Assembly (NCBI RefSeq): GCF_000377645.1
Contig: NZ_KB898497.1
Location: 1 to 39,418, forward strand
Length of the DNA stretch: 39,418 nucleotides
Reading direction: 5' to 3'
Source of the DNA: Thiomonas sp. FB-6
GTDB lineage: Bacteria; Pseudomonadota; Gammaproteobacteria; Burkholderiales; Burkholderiaceae_C
Made by a program: the position numbers and the translations under genes. Shown here piece by piece: positions 2,114 to 39,151 of the stretch; positions within the stretch are counted from its first letter, which is position 1; the number at the start of each line of letters is the position of its first letter. Under the pieces are notes generated by a model. The model saw only the letters and a list, made by a program, of their open reading frames with translations. It had not been told where the DNA came from and made no database searches.

Positions 2114-4043
2114 CGTCCAGGCCGAGCACGTCACGCAGGTCGGCCTCGGTCAGGGTCTCACGGCTGAGGAGCAGCGCGGCCCCCTGCTCCAGCTGCGCGC
2201 GGCGTTGCTGCAGCAGCGAGCGAGCGTGCTCGAAGGCCGCCCCCACCAGTTCGCGCACCGCGCAGTCGATCTCGCGTGCGGTCTGCTCGCTGTAGTTGCG
2301 CTGCGCGGGCAGCGGCGTGCCCAGCATGCTCTGCGGCGTGTCCTCCAACGCCACCTGGCCCAGCGAATCCACCATGGCGTAGCGCGTGGCCATGCTGCGC
2401 GCGATGTCGCTGGCCTTGGCCAGGTCGTCCGCGGCGCCGGTGGACAGCACGCCGAACACCAGGGACTCGGCCGCGCGCCCGCCCATCAGCACGGCCATCT
2501 TGTTCTCCAGCTCGACGCGGGTCATCAGGTAGCGGTCCTCGGTGGGGCGCTGGATGGTGTAGCCCAGCGAGCCGATACCGCGCGGGATGATCGACACCTT
2601 GTGCACCACCTCGCTGCCGGGCAGGCTCATGGCCACCAGCGCATGCCCCATTTCGTGGTGCGCCACCACCTCGCGCTCGTGGGGATTGAGCAGTCGGTTG
2701 CGCTTTTCCAGGCCGGCGACGATGCGCTCGACGGCGCGCGTGAAATGGTCGGCGTTCACGGCCTGGGCGTCGTCGCGCGTCGCCAGCAGCGCCGCCTCGT
2801 TGACCAGGTTGGCCAGGTCAGCGCCCGAAAAGCCCGGGGTCAGCGCGGCCACCTGCTCCAGGTCCACGGCGGGATCCAGGCGCACCTTGCGCGCGTGCAC
2901 GCGCAGGATCTGCACCCGCCCGACCTTGTCGGGCCGGTCCACGAGAACCTGGCGGTCGAAACGCCCGGCGCGCAGCAGCGCGGGGTCGAGAATCTCCGGG
3001 CGGTTGGTGGCGGACAGGATCACCAGCCCCGAGCTGGGGTCGAAGCCGTCGAGCTCGACCAGCAGCTGGTTCAGGGTCTGCTCCTTCTCGTCGTGCCCGC
3101 CGCCGAAGGGCGCCGCGGCGCGCGCGCGCCCCAGCGCGTCGAGTTCGTCGATGAAAATGATCGCCGGCGCCTTCGCCCGCGCCTGCTCGAACAGGTCGCG
3201 CACGCGGGCGGCGCCCACGCCCACGAACATTTCCACGAACTCCGAGCCGCTGATGGAGAAAAAGGGCACTCCGGCCTCGCCCGCCACCGCGCGCGCGAGC
3301 AGGGTCTTGCCGGTGCCCGGCGGCCCTACCAGCAGCACCCCCTTGGGCGCGCGCGCGCCCAGGCGCCCGTGGCCCTGCGGATCCTTGAGGAACTCCACCA
3401 CCTCCTGCAGCTCGTGCTTGGCCTCGTCGACGCCGGCCACGTCGGCGTAGCTCACGCCGGTGCTGTTTTCCATGTACACCTTGGCGTGGCTCTTGCCGAT
3501 GGACAGGAACCCTCCGCCCAGGCCGCCCTGCCGGTCCGCGAAACGCCGCACCATGAAATACCACACCCCGAAAAAGGCCAGGGCCGGGAACACCCACGAC
3601 AACAGATTGGCCAGCCAGGCGTTGCTGGGCAGCTGTTCGTAGCGCACGCCGTAGCGCTGCAGCTGCTGCGCCACCTGCGGATCCACGCGCAGCGCGGCCA
3701 GCTTGGTCGGCCCCTTCGGCGCGGGCTGGCGCAGCGTGCCGGTGATGGTCTGTTCGCCCAGCTGCACCTCGCTGAAGCGGCCCTGCTGCAGGGCAGCCTC
3801 GAATTCGCTGTAGGGCACGGTCTGCACCTGGGAGGCGCCCTGCCACAGGCCCTGCAGCCACAACAGCAGCATCAGCGCCACCAGCCAGTAGCCGAAATGG
3901 ATGCGCGCCTTGGGATCCAGGCTCGGCAGGCGCATGCGCCGCGGGGCCGGGCGGCCGGCTTCGTCGCGAGGGTCCGAGGCACCGGACCGTTGCGCGGCGT
4001 CGGGCTCGCGCCCGGCTCGGGGCTCGTCGTCAGGCTGGGGCAT
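2046..4043 (-). CDS. ftsH: FtsH-type ATP-dependent zinc metalloprotease (probable second paralogue)
   Basis: This is a membrane-anchored AAA+ protease of 665 residues that extracts and degrades membrane and cytosolic proteins as a hexamer. A Pro/Arg-rich N-terminus is followed by a helix at about 49-66, a periplasmic FtsH_ext domain, and a second helix at about 147-165. The AAA module has Walker A GPPGTGKT (240-247), Walker [11 protein letters not shown] (about 295-304) and the arginine-finger region AGRFDRQ (about 359-365). The peptidase M41 motif is HEMGH (463-467); the family norm is HEAGH, but the zinc-binding HExxH is kept. A good Shine-Dalgarno (GGAGG) precedes the ATG at 4043. It sits directly downstream of the ba3-oxidase operon, unlike the usual rlmE-ftsH-folP context of the essential copy, so I infer an additional, possibly stress- or oxidase-linked paralogue. 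Confidence 0.93.
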
Positions 4044-17822: not shown

Positions 17823-17919
17823 TGGGATGGCGGCAGGGTCAGTCGCAAAAGCCCAGCATAGCCGGTCGCGCACGCGCGCGCGATGACCTGCGGCAATCCG
17901 CGTGCGAACCTGAGGCTCT

Positions 17920-17994
17920 CAAGAAAACGCCGGGCCGCCCCAAGTTTTCTTGACCCCCACGGGGGGCGGGCTGGGCGCAGCCCGGCCCTGGGGG
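17920..17994 (-). repeat. Dispersed double-hairpin element, copy 1 (3' side of the XRE-cupin gene)
   Basis: Read on the minus strand from 17994, the element starts 3 bases after the stop of the XRE-cupin gene. Hairpin A has outer arms CCCCCA (17989-17994 on the minus strand) and TGGGGG (17954-17959) and an inner 6-bp stem, GGGCTG with CAGCCC, around a GGCG loop (17968-17983). Hairpin B is a perfect 9-bp stem, CAAGAAAAC with GTTTTCTTG (17920-17952), around a GC-rich 15-base loop. The same element occurs at 37752-37827 on the plus strand. Confidence 0.85.
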
Positions 17995-17997
17995 CGC

Positions 17998-18633
17998 TCA
18001 ACCGCGAACCGCGGCTCGCCCTCGCGGGTAGTGGATCAGGTCCAGGAACACCACGGGCGCGCCGCCCGGGTTGCGGTAGCCGTGCTCACGGTCGCCGGCC
18101 AGGCGCAGACCATCCCCCTCTCCCAGGCGGACCCAGGCTCCGCCGCTCAGCACTTCCAGGCTGCCGCGCTGCACCACGACGTGCTCGACCACGCCCGCGA
18201 CGTGGGGCTCGGACACGCGCTCGTAGCCGGGCAGCAGGGTCAGCTCGAAGACCTCGAAGCCCAGCGCGGGGTCGAAGGCGAACAACGGTGCCATCAGCAT
18301 GGCGTCGCTGGCCGGCCGGGAACGCACGCGCCGCGGATCGCGCACCTCGGCCGCCGCCCCCGCATGGGGCGGCAGCAGGTCGCTGAGGGCGCAGCCGAAG
18401 CCGCCGGCGATGCGCCACAGCAGTGCCACCGTCGGGCTGGATTCTCCGCGCTCGATCTGGCCCAGCATGGCCTTGCTCACCCCGCAGGCCTCGGCCGCGC
18501 GCTGCAGGCTCCAGCCCCGCTCGGCGCGCAGCGCGCGCAGCCGCTCCGAGAGCCTGCGCGCGATGTCCGGGCCGGCATCGGCGGCTTGCGCCGCCTGGGC
18601 TTGGGCGGCCCCCTTGTGCGTTATAGCGTCCAT
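17998..18633 (-). CDS. XRE-family transcriptional regulator with C-terminal cupin domain
   Basis: This 211-residue cytosolic DNA-binding protein has a lambda-repressor-like HTH at about residues 24-82, LRALRAERGWSLQRAAEACG then SKAMLGQIERGESSPTVALL. A single-domain cupin follows at about 115-205, with YERVSEPHVAGVVEHVVVQRGSL and DREHGYRNPG. This layout is the SutR/YdcN-type, where the cupin presumably senses a small ligand or metal. It is divergent from the BenE-like transporter with 81 bases between starts, which suggests that it controls that gene and itself. Two direct repeats in that interval (18616-18629, 18653-18666) are the likely operators; the first overlaps its own first codons. The ligand is not predictable. 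Confidence 0.9.
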   Translation of the reverse strand: MDAITHKGAAQAQAAQAADAGPDIARRLSERLRALRAERGWSLQRAAEACGVSKAMLGQIERGESSPTVALLWRIAGGFGCALSDLLPPHAGAAAEVRDPRRVRSRPASDAMLMAPLFAFDPALGFEVFELTLLPGYERVSEPHVAGVVEHVVVQRGSLEVLSGGAWVRLGEGDGLRLAGDREHGYRNPGGAPVVFLDLIHYPRGRAAVRG

Positions 18634-36552: not shown

Positions 36553-37749
36553 ATGTCCGAGCTTGCCCAGATCCGCATTCCCGCCACCTACATGCGCGGC
36601 GGCACCAGCAAAGGGGTGTTCTTCCGCCTGCAGGACCTGCCGGAAGCCGCGCGCCAGCCCGGCCGCGCGCGCGACCGGCTGCTGCAGCGGGTGATCGGCA
36701 GCCCCGACCCCTACGCCAAGCAGATCGACGGCATGGGCGGCGCCACCTCCAGCACCAGCAAGACGGTGATCCTGTCCCCCTCCACGCGCCCGGGCCACGA
36801 CGTGGACTACCTGTTCGGCCAGGTGGCCATCGACAGCGACTTCGTCGACTGGAGCGGCAACTGCGGCAATCTTTCCGCGGCGGTGGGCCCCTTCGCCATC
36901 GCCAGCGGCCTGGTGCCGGCGAACAACGTACCGCACGACGGCGTGGCCGTGGTGCGCATCTGGCAGGCCAACATCGGCAAGACCATCGTCGCCCACGTGC
37001 CCATGCGCGCCGGCGCGGTGAAGGAAACCGGCGACTTCGAGCTCGACGGCGTGACCTTCCCCGCCGCCGAGGTGCAACTCGAGTTCCTGGACCCGGCGGC
37101 CGACGAGGACGGCGACGGCGCCGGCGGGGCGATGTTCCCCACCGGCCACGTGGTGGACACGCTGGAGGTCCCCGGCGTGGGCAGCTTCGCGGCCACGATG
37201 ATCAACGCCGGCATTCCCACCATCTTTCTCAACGCTTCCGACCTCGGCTACCGCGGTACCGAGTTGCAGGACGCGATCAACTCCGACCCCGCCGCGCTGG
37301 CCCGCTTCGAGACCATCCGCGCGCACGGGGCCGTGCGCATGGGCCTGATCCGCAGCGTGGACGAGGCCGCCACGCGCCAGCACACGCCCAAGGTGGCCTT
37401 CGTCGCGCCGCCGGCCGACTACGTCGCCTCCAGCGGCAAGCACGTCGCCGCGGGCGACATGGACCTGCTGGTGCGCGCCATGTCCATGGGCAAGCTGCAC
37501 CACGCGATGATGGGCACGGCGGCCGTGTCCATCGGCACCGCCGCGGCCATTCCCGGCACCCTGGTCAACCTGGCCGCCGGCGGCGGCGAACGCTCCTCGG
37601 TGCGCTTCGGACACCCGTCGGGCACGCTGCGCGTGGGCGCCGAGGCCGTGCTCGACAAGGGCCAGTGGAAGGTGACCAAGGCCCTGATGAGCCGCAGCGC
37701 CCGCGTGCTGATGGAAGGCTGGGTGCGCATCCCGGGCGACGCGTTCTGA
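36553..37749 (+). CDS. prpF: 2-Methylaconitate cis-trans isomerase PrpF
   Basis: This 398-residue protein of the PrpF/DUF453 family, with a diaminopimelate-epimerase fold, isomerises the AcnD product to 2-methyl-cis-aconitate so that aconitase can hydrate it. The functional Lys70 (ATSSTSKTVIL) and Cys104 (DWSGNCGNLSAAVG) correspond to the Lys and Cys described for Shewanella PrpF. IPATYMRGGTSKGVFF at the N-terminus and GGGERSSVRFGHPSGT near the C-terminus are family marks. A ribosome site (GAGG) precedes the ATG, 16 bases after acnD. Its stop is followed after 2 bases by a double-hairpin repeat that may end the operon transcript. Confidence 0.96.
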   Translation: MSELAQIRIPATYMRGGTSKGVFFRLQDLPEAARQPGRARDRLLQRVIGSPDPYAKQIDGMGGATSSTSKTVILSPSTRPGHDVDYLFGQVAIDSDFVDWSGNCGNLSAAVGPFAIASGLVPANNVPHDGVAVVRIWQANIGKTIVAHVPMRAGAVKETGDFELDGVTFPAAEVQLEFLDPAADEDGDGAGGAMFPTGHVVDTLEVPGVGSFAATMINAGIPTIFLNASDLGYRGTELQDAINSDPAALARFETIRAHGAVRMGLIRSVDEAATRQHTPKVAFVAPPADYVASSGKHVAAGDMDLLVRAMSMGKLHHAMMGTAAVSIGTAAAIPGTLVNLAAGGGERSSVRFGHPSGTLRVGAEAVLDKGQWKVTKALMSRSARVLMEGWVRIPGDAF

Positions 37750-37751
37750 AT

Positions 37752-37827
37752 CCCCCAGGGCCGGGCTGCGCCCGGCCCTGCCCCGCGTGGGGGTCCAGGA
37801 ATCCTGGGGCGGCCCTGCGATTCCTCG
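37752..37827 (+). repeat. Dispersed double-hairpin element, copy 2 (3' side of prpF)
   Basis: Hairpin A has outer arms CCCCCA (37752-37757) and TGGGGG (37788-37793) and a perfect 10-bp inner stem, AGGGCCGGGC with GCCCGGCCCT (37757-37779), around TGC. Hairpin B has the 7-bp stem AGGAATC/GATTCCT (37797-37825) around a loop containing GGGGCGGCCCTGC. Copy 1 at 17920-17994 has the same layout and loop but different arm sequences in hairpin B, still paired. Confidence 0.85.
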
Positions 37828-37924
37828 AGACGGCCCCCCGGCTCGCGGGGTCTTGTATCCGCACGCCTGCACGGGCAAGCGGGGGCCCCTAGTCTGGCGG
37901 GCAGCGAACCGACGCGCGCCCGCC

Positions 37925-39151
37925 ATGCCCAATCACCTCAACTTCAAGTTCACCACCGTGCGCGGCGGCGGGCCCCCGGCGACCGTGCGCTGCAGCTGCG
38001 ACGACTTCTGGAGCGTGGCCCAGCAGCGCGCGATGCTCGAGCTGTACCCCCGTGTGGTGCACAAGGAGCCGCGGTTCATCCAGCTCTCCCGGGAGGACAT
38101 CCGGATCATTCCCCCTCCGCCGGAACCCAAGCCGCTCGCCGAGGGTCAACGCCTGCGGTTGCTGGAGCGGCAGCACGCCCGCTTCATGGGCGCCAAACCG
38201 GGGCAGTCGCTCGGGCCGCCGCCTGATCCCCTGGCGAGGGCCGAACGGGATCCGGCCGTGATCGAGCACTACCAGCGCGACGGCCTGCGCTACGCGACGC
38301 GCGCCCGGCTCATCGCCCGCGCCTACGCCTGCATGTACCTGGAAGACTTCGAGCACGGCAACCCTAAGCTGCAGGGCCGCTTCTACTGGGCCGGGCTGGC
38401 CGCCTTCGCGTCCAAGCAGGTGGCCTGCACGCTGGAAAAGCTGATCGTCCACTGGCTCGCCCGCGACACGATCCGGGCCCTGGGCAAGGGCAACCTGTGG
38501 CTGTACAACGATGCCTGGCCCTGGCATTACGCCTGGGCGCTGTGCCCCAAGTCGGTCGAGATCTGCACCCAGGAGCGCGACGCGCAGAACCTGCACCCCA
38601 CGGTGCTGAGCAACTTCAGCGCCCAGGAATGGGCGAAAGAGGTCATTGCCTGCGTACCCTGGCATATCGACGAGCAAACCGGAGAAGTCGGGAAACCCAT
38701 CGGACAGTTCCGCATCGCCCCGCTGATGAGCGAGGCGATCGAGGGGTGGAAGCGCATCGAGGACGAGTCGAACCCGGACAACCGTCGAGCGCTGTGCATG
38801 GATCACCTCTGGGCCATGGCCCGCCACGAGCAGGGGGAAGTGCTGCAAGGCCTGGTCTACAGCGACGACGACCTCATCAGGAATCTCGAACAAGGCCGAT
38901 TCCTTCGCGACCGCATGAGACTGGACAAGCTCTTCTACCTGTTCAAGCTCCAGCTCAGTTTCAGCGCCGAGGAATACACCGACGACGACGAATTCCGCTC
39001 CGAGGCGCCCAGGGGAATCGCCCTCGAGCACTACAAGGAGCGCATGGATTGGATCAAGAACACCGCGCAGCAATACGACAAGCTCATGTTCGGCGACAAG
39101 CGTGAGCGCATGCTCGCCGAGTTGCGCAAACTGGCCGAATGGGATGGCTGA
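37925..39151 (+). CDS. Uncharacterised 408-residue protein
   Basis: I do not recognise this protein with confidence. It has no signal peptide or membrane helix and looks cytosolic. Visible blocks are the N-terminal FTTVRGGGPPATVRCSCDDF, an IIPPPPEPKP Pro-rich stretch (about residues 60-69), and a Trp/Tyr-rich core with YLEDFEHGNPKLQGRFYWAG, ASKQVACTLEKLIVHWL and GNLWLYNDAWPWHYAWALCP. The C-terminal half is rich in charged residues. The core loosely recalls the DUF2515 group, but that is only an impression. It starts at the ATG at 37925, after the prpF 3' repeat, and overlaps by 8 bases the next gene, which encodes an exported protein, so the two are probably translationally coupled and functionally linked. 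Confidence 0.8.
   Translation: MPNHLNFKFTTVRGGGPPATVRCSCDDFWSVAQQRAMLELYPRVVHKEPRFIQLSREDIRIIPPPPEPKPLAEGQRLRLLERQHARFMGAKPGQSLGPPPDPLARAERDPAVIEHYQRDGLRYATRARLIARAYACMYLEDFEHGNPKLQGRFYWAGLAAFASKQVACTLEKLIVHWLARDTIRALGKGNLWLYNDAWPWHYAWALCPKSVEICTQERDAQNLHPTVLSNFSAQEWAKEVIACVPWHIDEQTGEVGKPIGQFRIAPLMSEAIEGWKRIEDESNPDNRRALCMDHLWAMARHEQGEVLQGLVYSDDDLIRNLEQGRFLRDRMRLDKLFYLFKLQLSFSAEEYTDDDEFRSEAPRGIALEHYKERMDWIKNTAQQYDKLMFGDKRERMLAELRKLAEWDG

What the first reader, a model, noticed from the sequence alone, without database searches (positions are those of the whole stretch)
17920..18000. Dispersed double-hairpin element with compensatory arm changes at gene 3' ends (copy 1)
The element starts 3 bases after the stop of the XRE-cupin gene on the minus strand, and its partner starts 2 bases after the prpF stop on the plus strand. 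Hairpin B arms are CAAGAAAAC/GTTTTCTTG here and AGGAATC/GATTCCT in copy 2. The bases differ on both sides but still pair, and the loop (GGGGCGGCC) is conserved. That is covariation, which suggests selection on structure. Possible roles are termination, mRNA 3'-end protection, or a REP-like mobile family.
Basis: partly seen in the sequence, partly recalled or inferred. Interest (0 to 1): 0.75.

Follow-up and report, generated by a model that had tools for sequence, protein, structure and literature searches.

The report
Jumping double-hairpin repeat after stop codons
The two hairpin sequences belong to a small mobile DNA repeat that many bacteria of the Burkholderia group carry in numerous copies and that inserts next to a short motif which gene-ending TGA codons often supply; what moves it is not known.

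Summary
Both window copies belong to a dispersed, mostly 81-nt double-hairpin repeat: 48 model matches in the own genome, partial and subfamily ones included, 24 of 25 genomes of the genus by BLAST, own included, and 55 of 150 of the family. Arms covary. A 3'-end function is not what the evidence favours; the repeat is a mobile element. Relatives lack it at ssb, XRE-cupin and prpF. Its left end follows CTTNTGAG (GAG in 93 of 136 left ends), also in copies away from stop codons. Its right end carries CTTGNGAG, with no clear target duplication. TGA stop codons supply the motif: 61 of 136 left ends sit at an in-frame stop, against 7 of 134 right ends and 138 of 8168 random positions. Tandem arrays form, and some copies lie in frame inside enzymes. 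REP tags are lacking, and no transposase family tested occurs in every carrier searched. Filed as a new, apparently undescribed family of REP/MITE-like repeats with unknown mobiliser.

The parts
17916..17996 (-). Copy 1: the 81-nt unit, from CG-CCCCC to CTTG-AGAG
   Evidence: Boundaries from 136 left and 140 right ends and sites without the element in G007, G019, G002
17954..17994 (-). Copy 1 hairpin A (CCCCC...GGGGG with inner hairpin)
   Evidence: Folding; pair counts
17920..17952 (-). Copy 1 hairpin B (CAAGAAAAC ... GTTTTCTTG around the TTGGGGCGGCCCGGC core)
   Evidence: Folding; covariation
17997..18001 (-). Copy 1 target TTGAG, containing the TGA stop (17998-18000) of the XRE-cupin gene
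   Evidence: an ortholog without the element has GATTGAG at this place (L343)
17998..18633 (-). HTH_3 + Cupin_2 (XRE-cupin) gene upstream of copy 1
   Evidence: Pfam
37750..37831 (+). Copy 2: diverged unit
37752..37793 (+). Copy 2 hairpin A
   Evidence: Alignment to copy 1; the fold of this copy alone prefers a split form
37795..37827 (+). Copy 2 hairpin B (CCAGGAATC ... GATTCCTCG)
37744..37749 (+). Copy 2 target TTCTGA, containing the prpF stop codon (37747-37749)
   Evidence: ortholog without the element in G019 (L328)
36553..37749 (+). prpF upstream of copy 2
   Evidence: Pfam PF04303, E 3.4e-170

Best explanation
The element is a small non-autonomous mobile DNA repeat, most often 81 nt, made of two adjacent hairpins. 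Shown by sequence: it lies to the right of a CTTNTGAG-like octamer in a fixed orientation and carries the similar octamer CTTGNGAG at its own right end. Compared with relatives that lack it, one clean unit has been added, with no target duplication that can be told from the shared GAG. Units also stand head to tail with period 81, joined at that right-end octamer. TGA stop codons followed by G supply the target, and insertions there break no gene, so copies pile up exactly at gene 3' ends. Inferred: the right end serves as a new target for further units; the hairpins are read as folded DNA (or RNA) by the mobilising enzyme, and for that reason the arms change mostly in compensating ways. The enzyme is not identified.
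For: Copies: own genome 48 matches at E<=0.01 with R1, of which 12 share the top score. Sites without the element: ssb TTCTGAG|GACGGG in L100 and TTCTGAG|GAACGGG in L105, against TTCTGAG[unit ending CTTGAGAG]GACGGG in the own genome; cupin L342, L343, L344, L353; prpF L328, with matching right flanks. Junctions: 136 array-left ends, TGAG at -6..-3 in 75 and GAG in 93. The motif is present in the 75 left ends not called stop-adjacent (T at -9 44, T at -6 45, G at -5 56, A at -4 52, G at -3 64, of 75). Of 140 right ends, G, A, G at the last three places in 129, 113 and 107, then random bases. Stop adjacency: 61 of 136 left ends, 7 of 134 right ends, 138 of 8168 random positions; TGA starting exactly 6 nt before the C-run in 42 of 136 against 4 of 8168. 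Covariation: 39 double-change cells against 11.4 in shuffles, score 0.137 against 0.069; 52 distinct arm pairs match their own partner at 7.54 of 9 on average against 6.21 shuffled, maximum 6.77 of 2000 shuffles. Tandem period 81 in 19 of 26. Different copies or parts of copies follow prpF in 4 of the 15 genomes with a match to the gene: G000, G005, G018, G020 (read by eye).
Against: No mobilising enzyme was found and no excision or circle was looked for or seen. Left and right triplets agree slightly more often than by chance (45 of 101, permuted mean 40.4, share 0.06), so a 3-nt duplication of GAG is not excluded. 75 of 136 left ends were not called stop-adjacent by the heuristic. In the pair counts one pair of hairpin B (columns 56-67) is unpaired in 17 of 32. 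The copy sample was picked by a pattern and by best matches, so it favours well-kept copies; at least one single copy (L012) was wrongly filed as tandem-internal by the script.
Confidence: 0.8

Rival explanations
1. A host 3'-end element (terminator, mRNA stabiliser or stop-codon-proximal translation brake) kept by selection for its RNA structure.
For: Hairpins begin 1-3 nt after the stop and lie on the mRNA strand; strong folding; the inner part of hairpin B is terminator-like in the common arm type. E. coli REPs within 15 nt of a stop are reported to stall ribosomes (PMC12306157, passages seen).
Against: Follows ssb in 3 of 26 listed genus loci, cupin in 1 of 11 aligned, prpF in 4 of 15 (own included, by eye). 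T-rich arms are replaced by arms such as CGCCTCGCC/GGCGAGGCG and GTCGGC/GCCGAC without loss of pairing. At ssb a separate hairpin with T-run lies downstream with or without the element (sequence; the scan lists it on the other strand). Some copies read as parts of ORFs, and copies off stop codons share the junction motif.
Confidence: 0.12
2. A REP/REPIN family moved by a RAYT (Y1 HUH) transposase.
For: Short, palindromic, many copies, extragenic, near gene ends; no clear target duplication. Five carriers (G011, G014, G047, G140, G143) have one PF01797 match each.
Against: GTAG in the flanks of 2 and CGTC in 3 region counts over 189 copies. PF01797 gives 0 matches in G000, G005, G088 and G092, all rich in copies, while G022, with 9 matches, has no element by BLAST. 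In 19 transposase loci (13 of them Y1) the best element match is 14.6 bits, E 0.82. The units are a pair of different hairpins in direct tandem, not inverted REP pairs.
Confidence: 0.1
3. Stop adjacency is pure survivor bias: insertion is random and only copies outside genes remain.
For: Insertions in genes would mostly be lost; 75 of 136 left ends were not called stop-adjacent.
Against: One exact offset dominates (42 of 136 against 4 of 8168); the octamer motif is present in non-stop copies; left and right sides differ sharply (61 of 136 against 7 of 134); relatives without the element carry the same TTCTGAG.
Confidence: 0.05
4. Movement by a site-specific recombinase or RNA-guided (IS110-type) enzyme that joins a circular unit (junction CTTGNGAG/CGCCCCC) to CTTNTGAG, rather than by a single-strand transposase.
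For: Shared GAG at both ends and similar octamers at target and right end are what a shared recombination core would leave. PF02371 occurs in 10 of 11 genomes searched.
Against: PF02371 gives no match in G005, one of the richest carriers (93% complete assembly), and it is common (23 matches) in G022, which has no element by BLAST. Other recombinases were not searched.
Confidence: 0.2

Closest known systems
GTAG- and CGTC-tagged REPs (Di Nocera 2013, PMC3733652; passages seen)
   Same: Short palindromic repeats, mostly downstream of genes, sometimes inside ORFs; CGTC REPs also lack a known transposase; GTAG REPs often supply a stop codon.
   Different: Neither tag is present here; the unit is a fixed pair of two different hairpins; the stop codon belongs to the target (seen in sites without the element), not to the element; the junction octamer is CTTNTGAG.
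IS200/IS605-type single-strand elements and TnpA-REP systems (PMC6006769; passages and section 27 seen)
   Same: Hairpins near both ends, a short fixed sequence flanking the left end, a similar fixed sequence ending the right end, no clear duplication. Class 3 enzymes are described as flanked by structures with a CnGA foot; the CTGA here fits that formula, which may be chance.
   Different: No Y1 gene in four copy-rich genomes, no clear 4-nt guide 5' of each hairpin, and the guide idea (TCAAG pairing with CTT..GA) was not supported by comparing guide types.
Rickettsia palindromic elements (described in PMC10969869; passages seen)
   Same: Small palindromic repeats that insert in frame into protein genes.
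   Different: Here gene 3' ends dominate; unit 81 nt (27 codons), other bacterial class. No sequence comparison was made.
Bor repeats of Bordetella (PMC1590033; passages seen)
   Same: Stem-loop repeats of a Burkholderiales genus, close to coding regions.
   Different: 26-30 bp and REP-like as reported; no sequence comparison was made here.

Membership tests
REP (GTAG- or CGTC-tagged) | GTAG or CGTC tetranucleotide at the foot of the hairpin | tested here: not met
   189 copies, three 8-nt regions each: GTAG 2, CGTC 3, reverse forms GACG 11, CTAC 0
REP (RAYT-mobilised) | A Y1 (RAYT) gene in the genome, flanked by the repeat | tested here: not met
   PF01797: 0 in G000, G005, G088, G092; 7 of 11 genomes have one, five of them carriers with one match each; no element match better than E 0.82 in 13 Y1 loci scanned
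MITE with terminal inverted repeats | Terminal inverted repeats and target-site duplication | tested here: not met
   Ends are CGCCCCC.. and ..CTTGNGAG, not inverted copies; triplets identical in 45 of 101, permuted mean 40.4, so a GAG duplication is not excluded
IS200/IS605-derived element | Hairpins plus guide tetranucleotides that pair with the left and right cleavage sites | tested here: inconclusive
   Guide type against target tabulated for 136 left ends; TCAAG (102) and TCGAG (12) groups do not differ in the predicted way
IS91/ISCR (Y2 HUH) derived | A Y2 transposase in carriers | tested here: not met
   PF04986: 0 in carriers G000, G005, G088; 7 of 11 genomes have one
IS110-type | PF02371 transposase in carriers | tested here: inconclusive
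   10 of 11 genomes, but 0 in G005
Intrinsic terminator | GC-rich hairpin followed by a T-run | tested here: inconclusive
   Scan hit in hairpin B of copy 1 and of the ssb copy, none overlapping copy 2; the T-rich arm is not conserved among arm types
Known RNA family (Rfam 15) | Match over gathering score | tested here: not met
   0 matches in the window; in five loci searched by E-value two matches, both in L104 and below their gathering scores
Rickettsia palindromic element | In-frame insertion in protein genes | tested here: met
   ORFs with a recognised family on both sides of the element: ManC L237, NAD-GDH L240, HvfC-like L263. This is a likeness in behaviour
Rickettsia palindromic element | Sequence homology to the RPE families | not tested
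   No RPE sequence was fetched

The most novel reading that the evidence does not exclude
A family of stop-codon-homing mobile repeats whose movement is carried out by an unrecognised enzyme, or by host functions, that reads the two folded hairpins and cuts after CTTNNGAG. Its 27-codon unit, often free of stops in one frame of either strand, also lets it enter protein genes in frame in both orientations.
Probability: 0.35. Interest if true: 0.8.

Novelty: new variant of a known kind. Interest (0 to 1): 0.6.

Why it matters
It gives a sequence-level rule (target CTTNTGAG, right end CTTGNGAG, unit 81 nt) for a repeat family found in many genera of Burkholderiales and in Zoogloea. It explains why hairpins sit exactly at stop codons there: target choice plus survival rather than a 3'-end function. 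It points to an unidentified mobilising activity, since some copy-rich genomes lack the HUH families tested. The repeat also adds peptides of about 26-27 residues to enzymes, which matters for annotation and protein evolution.

Tried and rejected
Element arm or guide type against target octamer: a shift (GAGAG rather than CTGAG) was seen for the CGAG arm type (10 copies, 7 of them from G005 stretches), but the sample is small and not in the predicted direction; left as a lead.

A mobiliser gene next to copies: 1323 ORFs from 220 loci were clustered. The largest shared groups look, by eye, like ABC ATPases (16 loci) and acyl-CoA synthetases (11 loci), as expected of large families; I recognised no transposase among the 25 largest groups printed. 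No profile search was run on these groups.

Mobile vehicle: no phage record, no IMG/VR contig for one exact pattern, 3 plasmid records for copy 1 and 5 for subfamily 2.

Literature: eight searches. A search for five core letter strings found one unrelated paper. The library holds open-licence PMC papers only, so 'undescribed' means not found by these searches. Papers seen as passages only: PMC3733652, PMC1590033, PMC12306157, PMC10969869, PMC2817692, PMC2829063, and PMC6006769 (passages plus section 27). Others were seen as search listing.

Dropped rows: identical contexts and repeated 20-nt left flanks were counted once. 53 of 189 copies were filed as tandem-internal by a pattern, which misfiled at least L012. 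From G088, G092, G005 and G011 I fetched 60 stretches (17, 20, 20 and 3) out of longer match lists; not all of them yielded a copy to the pattern.

Full report
What is there. Copy 1 occupies 17916-17996 (minus) and copy 2 37750-37831 (plus); they are inverted-repeat partners in the window. Copy 1 starts directly behind the TGA of an HTH_3/Cupin_2 gene and copy 2 behind the TGA of prpF. Copy 1 folds into hairpin A (CCCCC...GGGGG with an inner hairpin) and hairpin B (arms around the core TTGGGGCGGCCC.GCG); copy 2 forms hairpin B but its own minimum-energy fold splits hairpin A. The loop motif alone is no evidence (3 found, 3.97 expected).

How many. In the own genome (4.2 Mb, 79 contigs) a DNA search gave 64 matches at E<=1, many partial. 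A covariance model built from 32 diverse copies gave 48 matches at E<=0.01, 12 of them at the same top score and some of them belonging to a second subfamily. Contigs C24 and C61 begin inside an array. Among 41 genomes, 24 had a BLAST match: 24 of 25 of the genus (own included) and 0 of 16 others of the order. Among 150 genomes of the family, own included, 55 had a match at E<=1e-3. Among 300 of the order, 5 had a match at E<=1e-5, own included, and among 398 of the phylum, 2, own included. The last two calls scored only 15 and 11 candidates per genome, so they are lower bounds.

Structure is conserved by compensation. On the MAFFT alignment of the 32 copies, 93.5% of cells pair, 39 cells have a change on both sides (shuffled 11.4), and the covariation score is 0.137 (shuffled 0.069; slid structures 0.020-0.055); one pair of hairpin B is open in 17 of 32. 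At a fixed offset from the core, 52 distinct pairs of hairpin B arms match their own partner at 7.54 of 9 positions against 6.21 when shuffled (maximum of 2000 shuffles 6.77). Arms range from CAAGAAAAC/GTTTTCTTG to CGCCTCGCC/GGCGAGGCG. Some copies are hybrids with arms of two types (for example L005 and L298), as exchange between neighbours in an array could produce.

Ends and target. I took 189 distinct copies from the fetched loci by a pattern. 136 are left ends of arrays (53 were filed as internal, at least one of them wrongly). Their left flank reads CTTNTGAG before CGCCCCC: TGAG at -6..-3 in 75 and GAG in 93. 140 right ends share G, A, G in 129, 113 and 107, directly after the CTTG of the arm and one free base, and then turn random. 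The commonest tandem junction reads CTTG-NGAG-CGCCCC. The period is 81 nt in 19 of 26 neighbouring pairs, and the unit from CG to NGAG is 81 nt in 86 of 115 copies where it could be read.

Sites without the element. At ssb the own genome reads TTCTGAG[unit ending CTTGAGAG]GACGGGG; two relatives read TTCTGAGGACGGG and TTCTGAGGAACGGG (L100, L105). At the XRE-cupin gene, relatives read GATTGAGCGCCGG (L343) or CCTGAGTC-type junctions (L342, L344, L353) without the element, and their right flanks match. At prpF, G019 (L328) has TTCTGA followed by a spacer without it. By eye the element, or a recognisable part, follows ssb in 3 of 26 listed genus loci (G000, G005, and a diverged one in G016), cupin in 1 of 11 aligned loci, and prpF in 4 of 15 (G000, G005, G018 in a long form, G020). 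So the sequence TTCTGAG comes first and the element later. A target duplication was tested: left and right triplets agree in 45 of 101 single arrays, permuted mean 40.4, share 0.06; 4-mers agree in 10, permuted 9.2. A duplicated GAG is thus not excluded.

Why at stop codons. A heuristic for in-frame stops (open frame of at least 60 codons with high third-position GC) of 136 left ends within 15 nt of a stop, against 7 of 134 right ends and 138 of 8168 random positions; TGA at the one exact offset is 42 of 136 against 4 of 8168. The 75 left ends not so called still show the octamer. The target is therefore a sequence motif; TGA stop codons followed by G supply it, and insertions there are harmless. 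A depositor's annotation agrees in one case: on IncP plasmid pAKD16 a partial match (54 of 90 query bases) begins at the last base of sdpA.

Inside genes. Ten distinct ORF readings run through copies with coding-like GC on both sides; several are weak, some have domain support. In L237 the ManC model TIGR01479 matches in two stretches, the second being residues 118-480 on profile 103-467, and the element peptide sits at 93-118. In L240 it sits at 753-778 between the GDH_HM3 and catalytic domains of an NAD-glutamate dehydrogenase. In L263 the HvfC model matches in two stretches, the best at 305-392, and the element peptide sits at 402-426. L300 has two units in a metallophosphatase ORF, L025 and L048 have N-terminal additions to PdxA and a ferritin-like protein; L079 has no family match. 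These are readings of DNA; expression was not tested.

Function and rivals. The common arm type makes the inner part of hairpin B look like a terminator, but other arm types lose the T-run and keep pairing, most orthologs do without the element, and at ssb a separate hairpin followed by T follows with or without it. A side effect on mRNA ends is possible but is not what keeps the family.

The mobiliser. Y1 transposases (PF01797) are absent from G000, G005, G088 and G092, while five other carriers have one each; Y2 (PF04986) is absent from G000, G005 and G088, IS110-type (PF02371) from G005. In 19 loci around such genes no element match is better than E 0.82. No transposase group was recognised among the largest gene groups beside copies. 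Draft assemblies and the limits of these profiles leave room for a missed or lost enzyme. A guide-pairing idea (TCAAG between the hairpins with CTT..GA of the target) was not supported.

Comparison. In the papers looked at (passages), REPs carry GTAG or CGTC tags (PMC3733652), IS200/IS605 and REP systems use a guide tetranucleotide at the hairpin foot (PMC6006769), and Rickettsia palindromic elements enter protein genes in frame (PMC10969869). The present element shares a trait with each and fails the tag and Y1 tests of REPs. No description of it was found in eight searches of the library, which is limited to open-licence papers. Verdict: a new family of a known kind, with an unusually exact junction rule and no known mobiliser.

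Noticed in passing
L315 1450-1860, L316 1230-1560, L317 1200-1520, L320 1200-1460, L318, L319 (own genome): A second subfamily in the same genome: GGCCCCCACGCTCGCT..CGCTGCCCCCCGAGGGGG plus a hairpin B with the same core but arms like CAGTCGGC/GCCGACTG, in tandem arrays of 78-80 nt in four loci; five of the six loci begin at or near a TGA (by eye). L164 from another genus has yet other, paired arms.
   Followed up: partly
L002/L028, L290, L339 (and a partial form in L111): A long form of the element: a similar ~80-nt segment (CACCTCGC.GCCTGCAGGC.GCTCGGATTCGGC..), itself with hairpins, lies inside hairpin A in three genomes; it may be an older, longer version.
   Followed up: partly
L287-L306 (G005): In one genome two arm types seem to prefer different junctions: CGAG-armed copies often follow ..GAGAG, CAAGCAATC-armed copies follow ..CTGAG (10 copies per type, not all from G005).
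   Followed up: partly
L312 around 2990-3035 and L307 2988-3036: Single-hairpin derivatives: a palindrome CCGCCCCCAGGGCCGGGC...GCCCGGCCCTGGGGGCGG, and a deletion that joins the start of hairpin A to the end of hairpin B behind a TGA.
   Followed up: no
G022 and G021 (same genus): These two genomes have none or one copy by BLAST but several Y1 and IS110-type transposase matches (9 and 2; 23 and 4), the reverse of what a Y1 or IS110 mobiliser would predict.
   Followed up: no
window 37787-39151: DUF2515 protein gene downstream of copy 2 (E 3.3e-40); the mechanical ORF start overlaps the element, so the true start probably lies further downstream.
   Followed up: no
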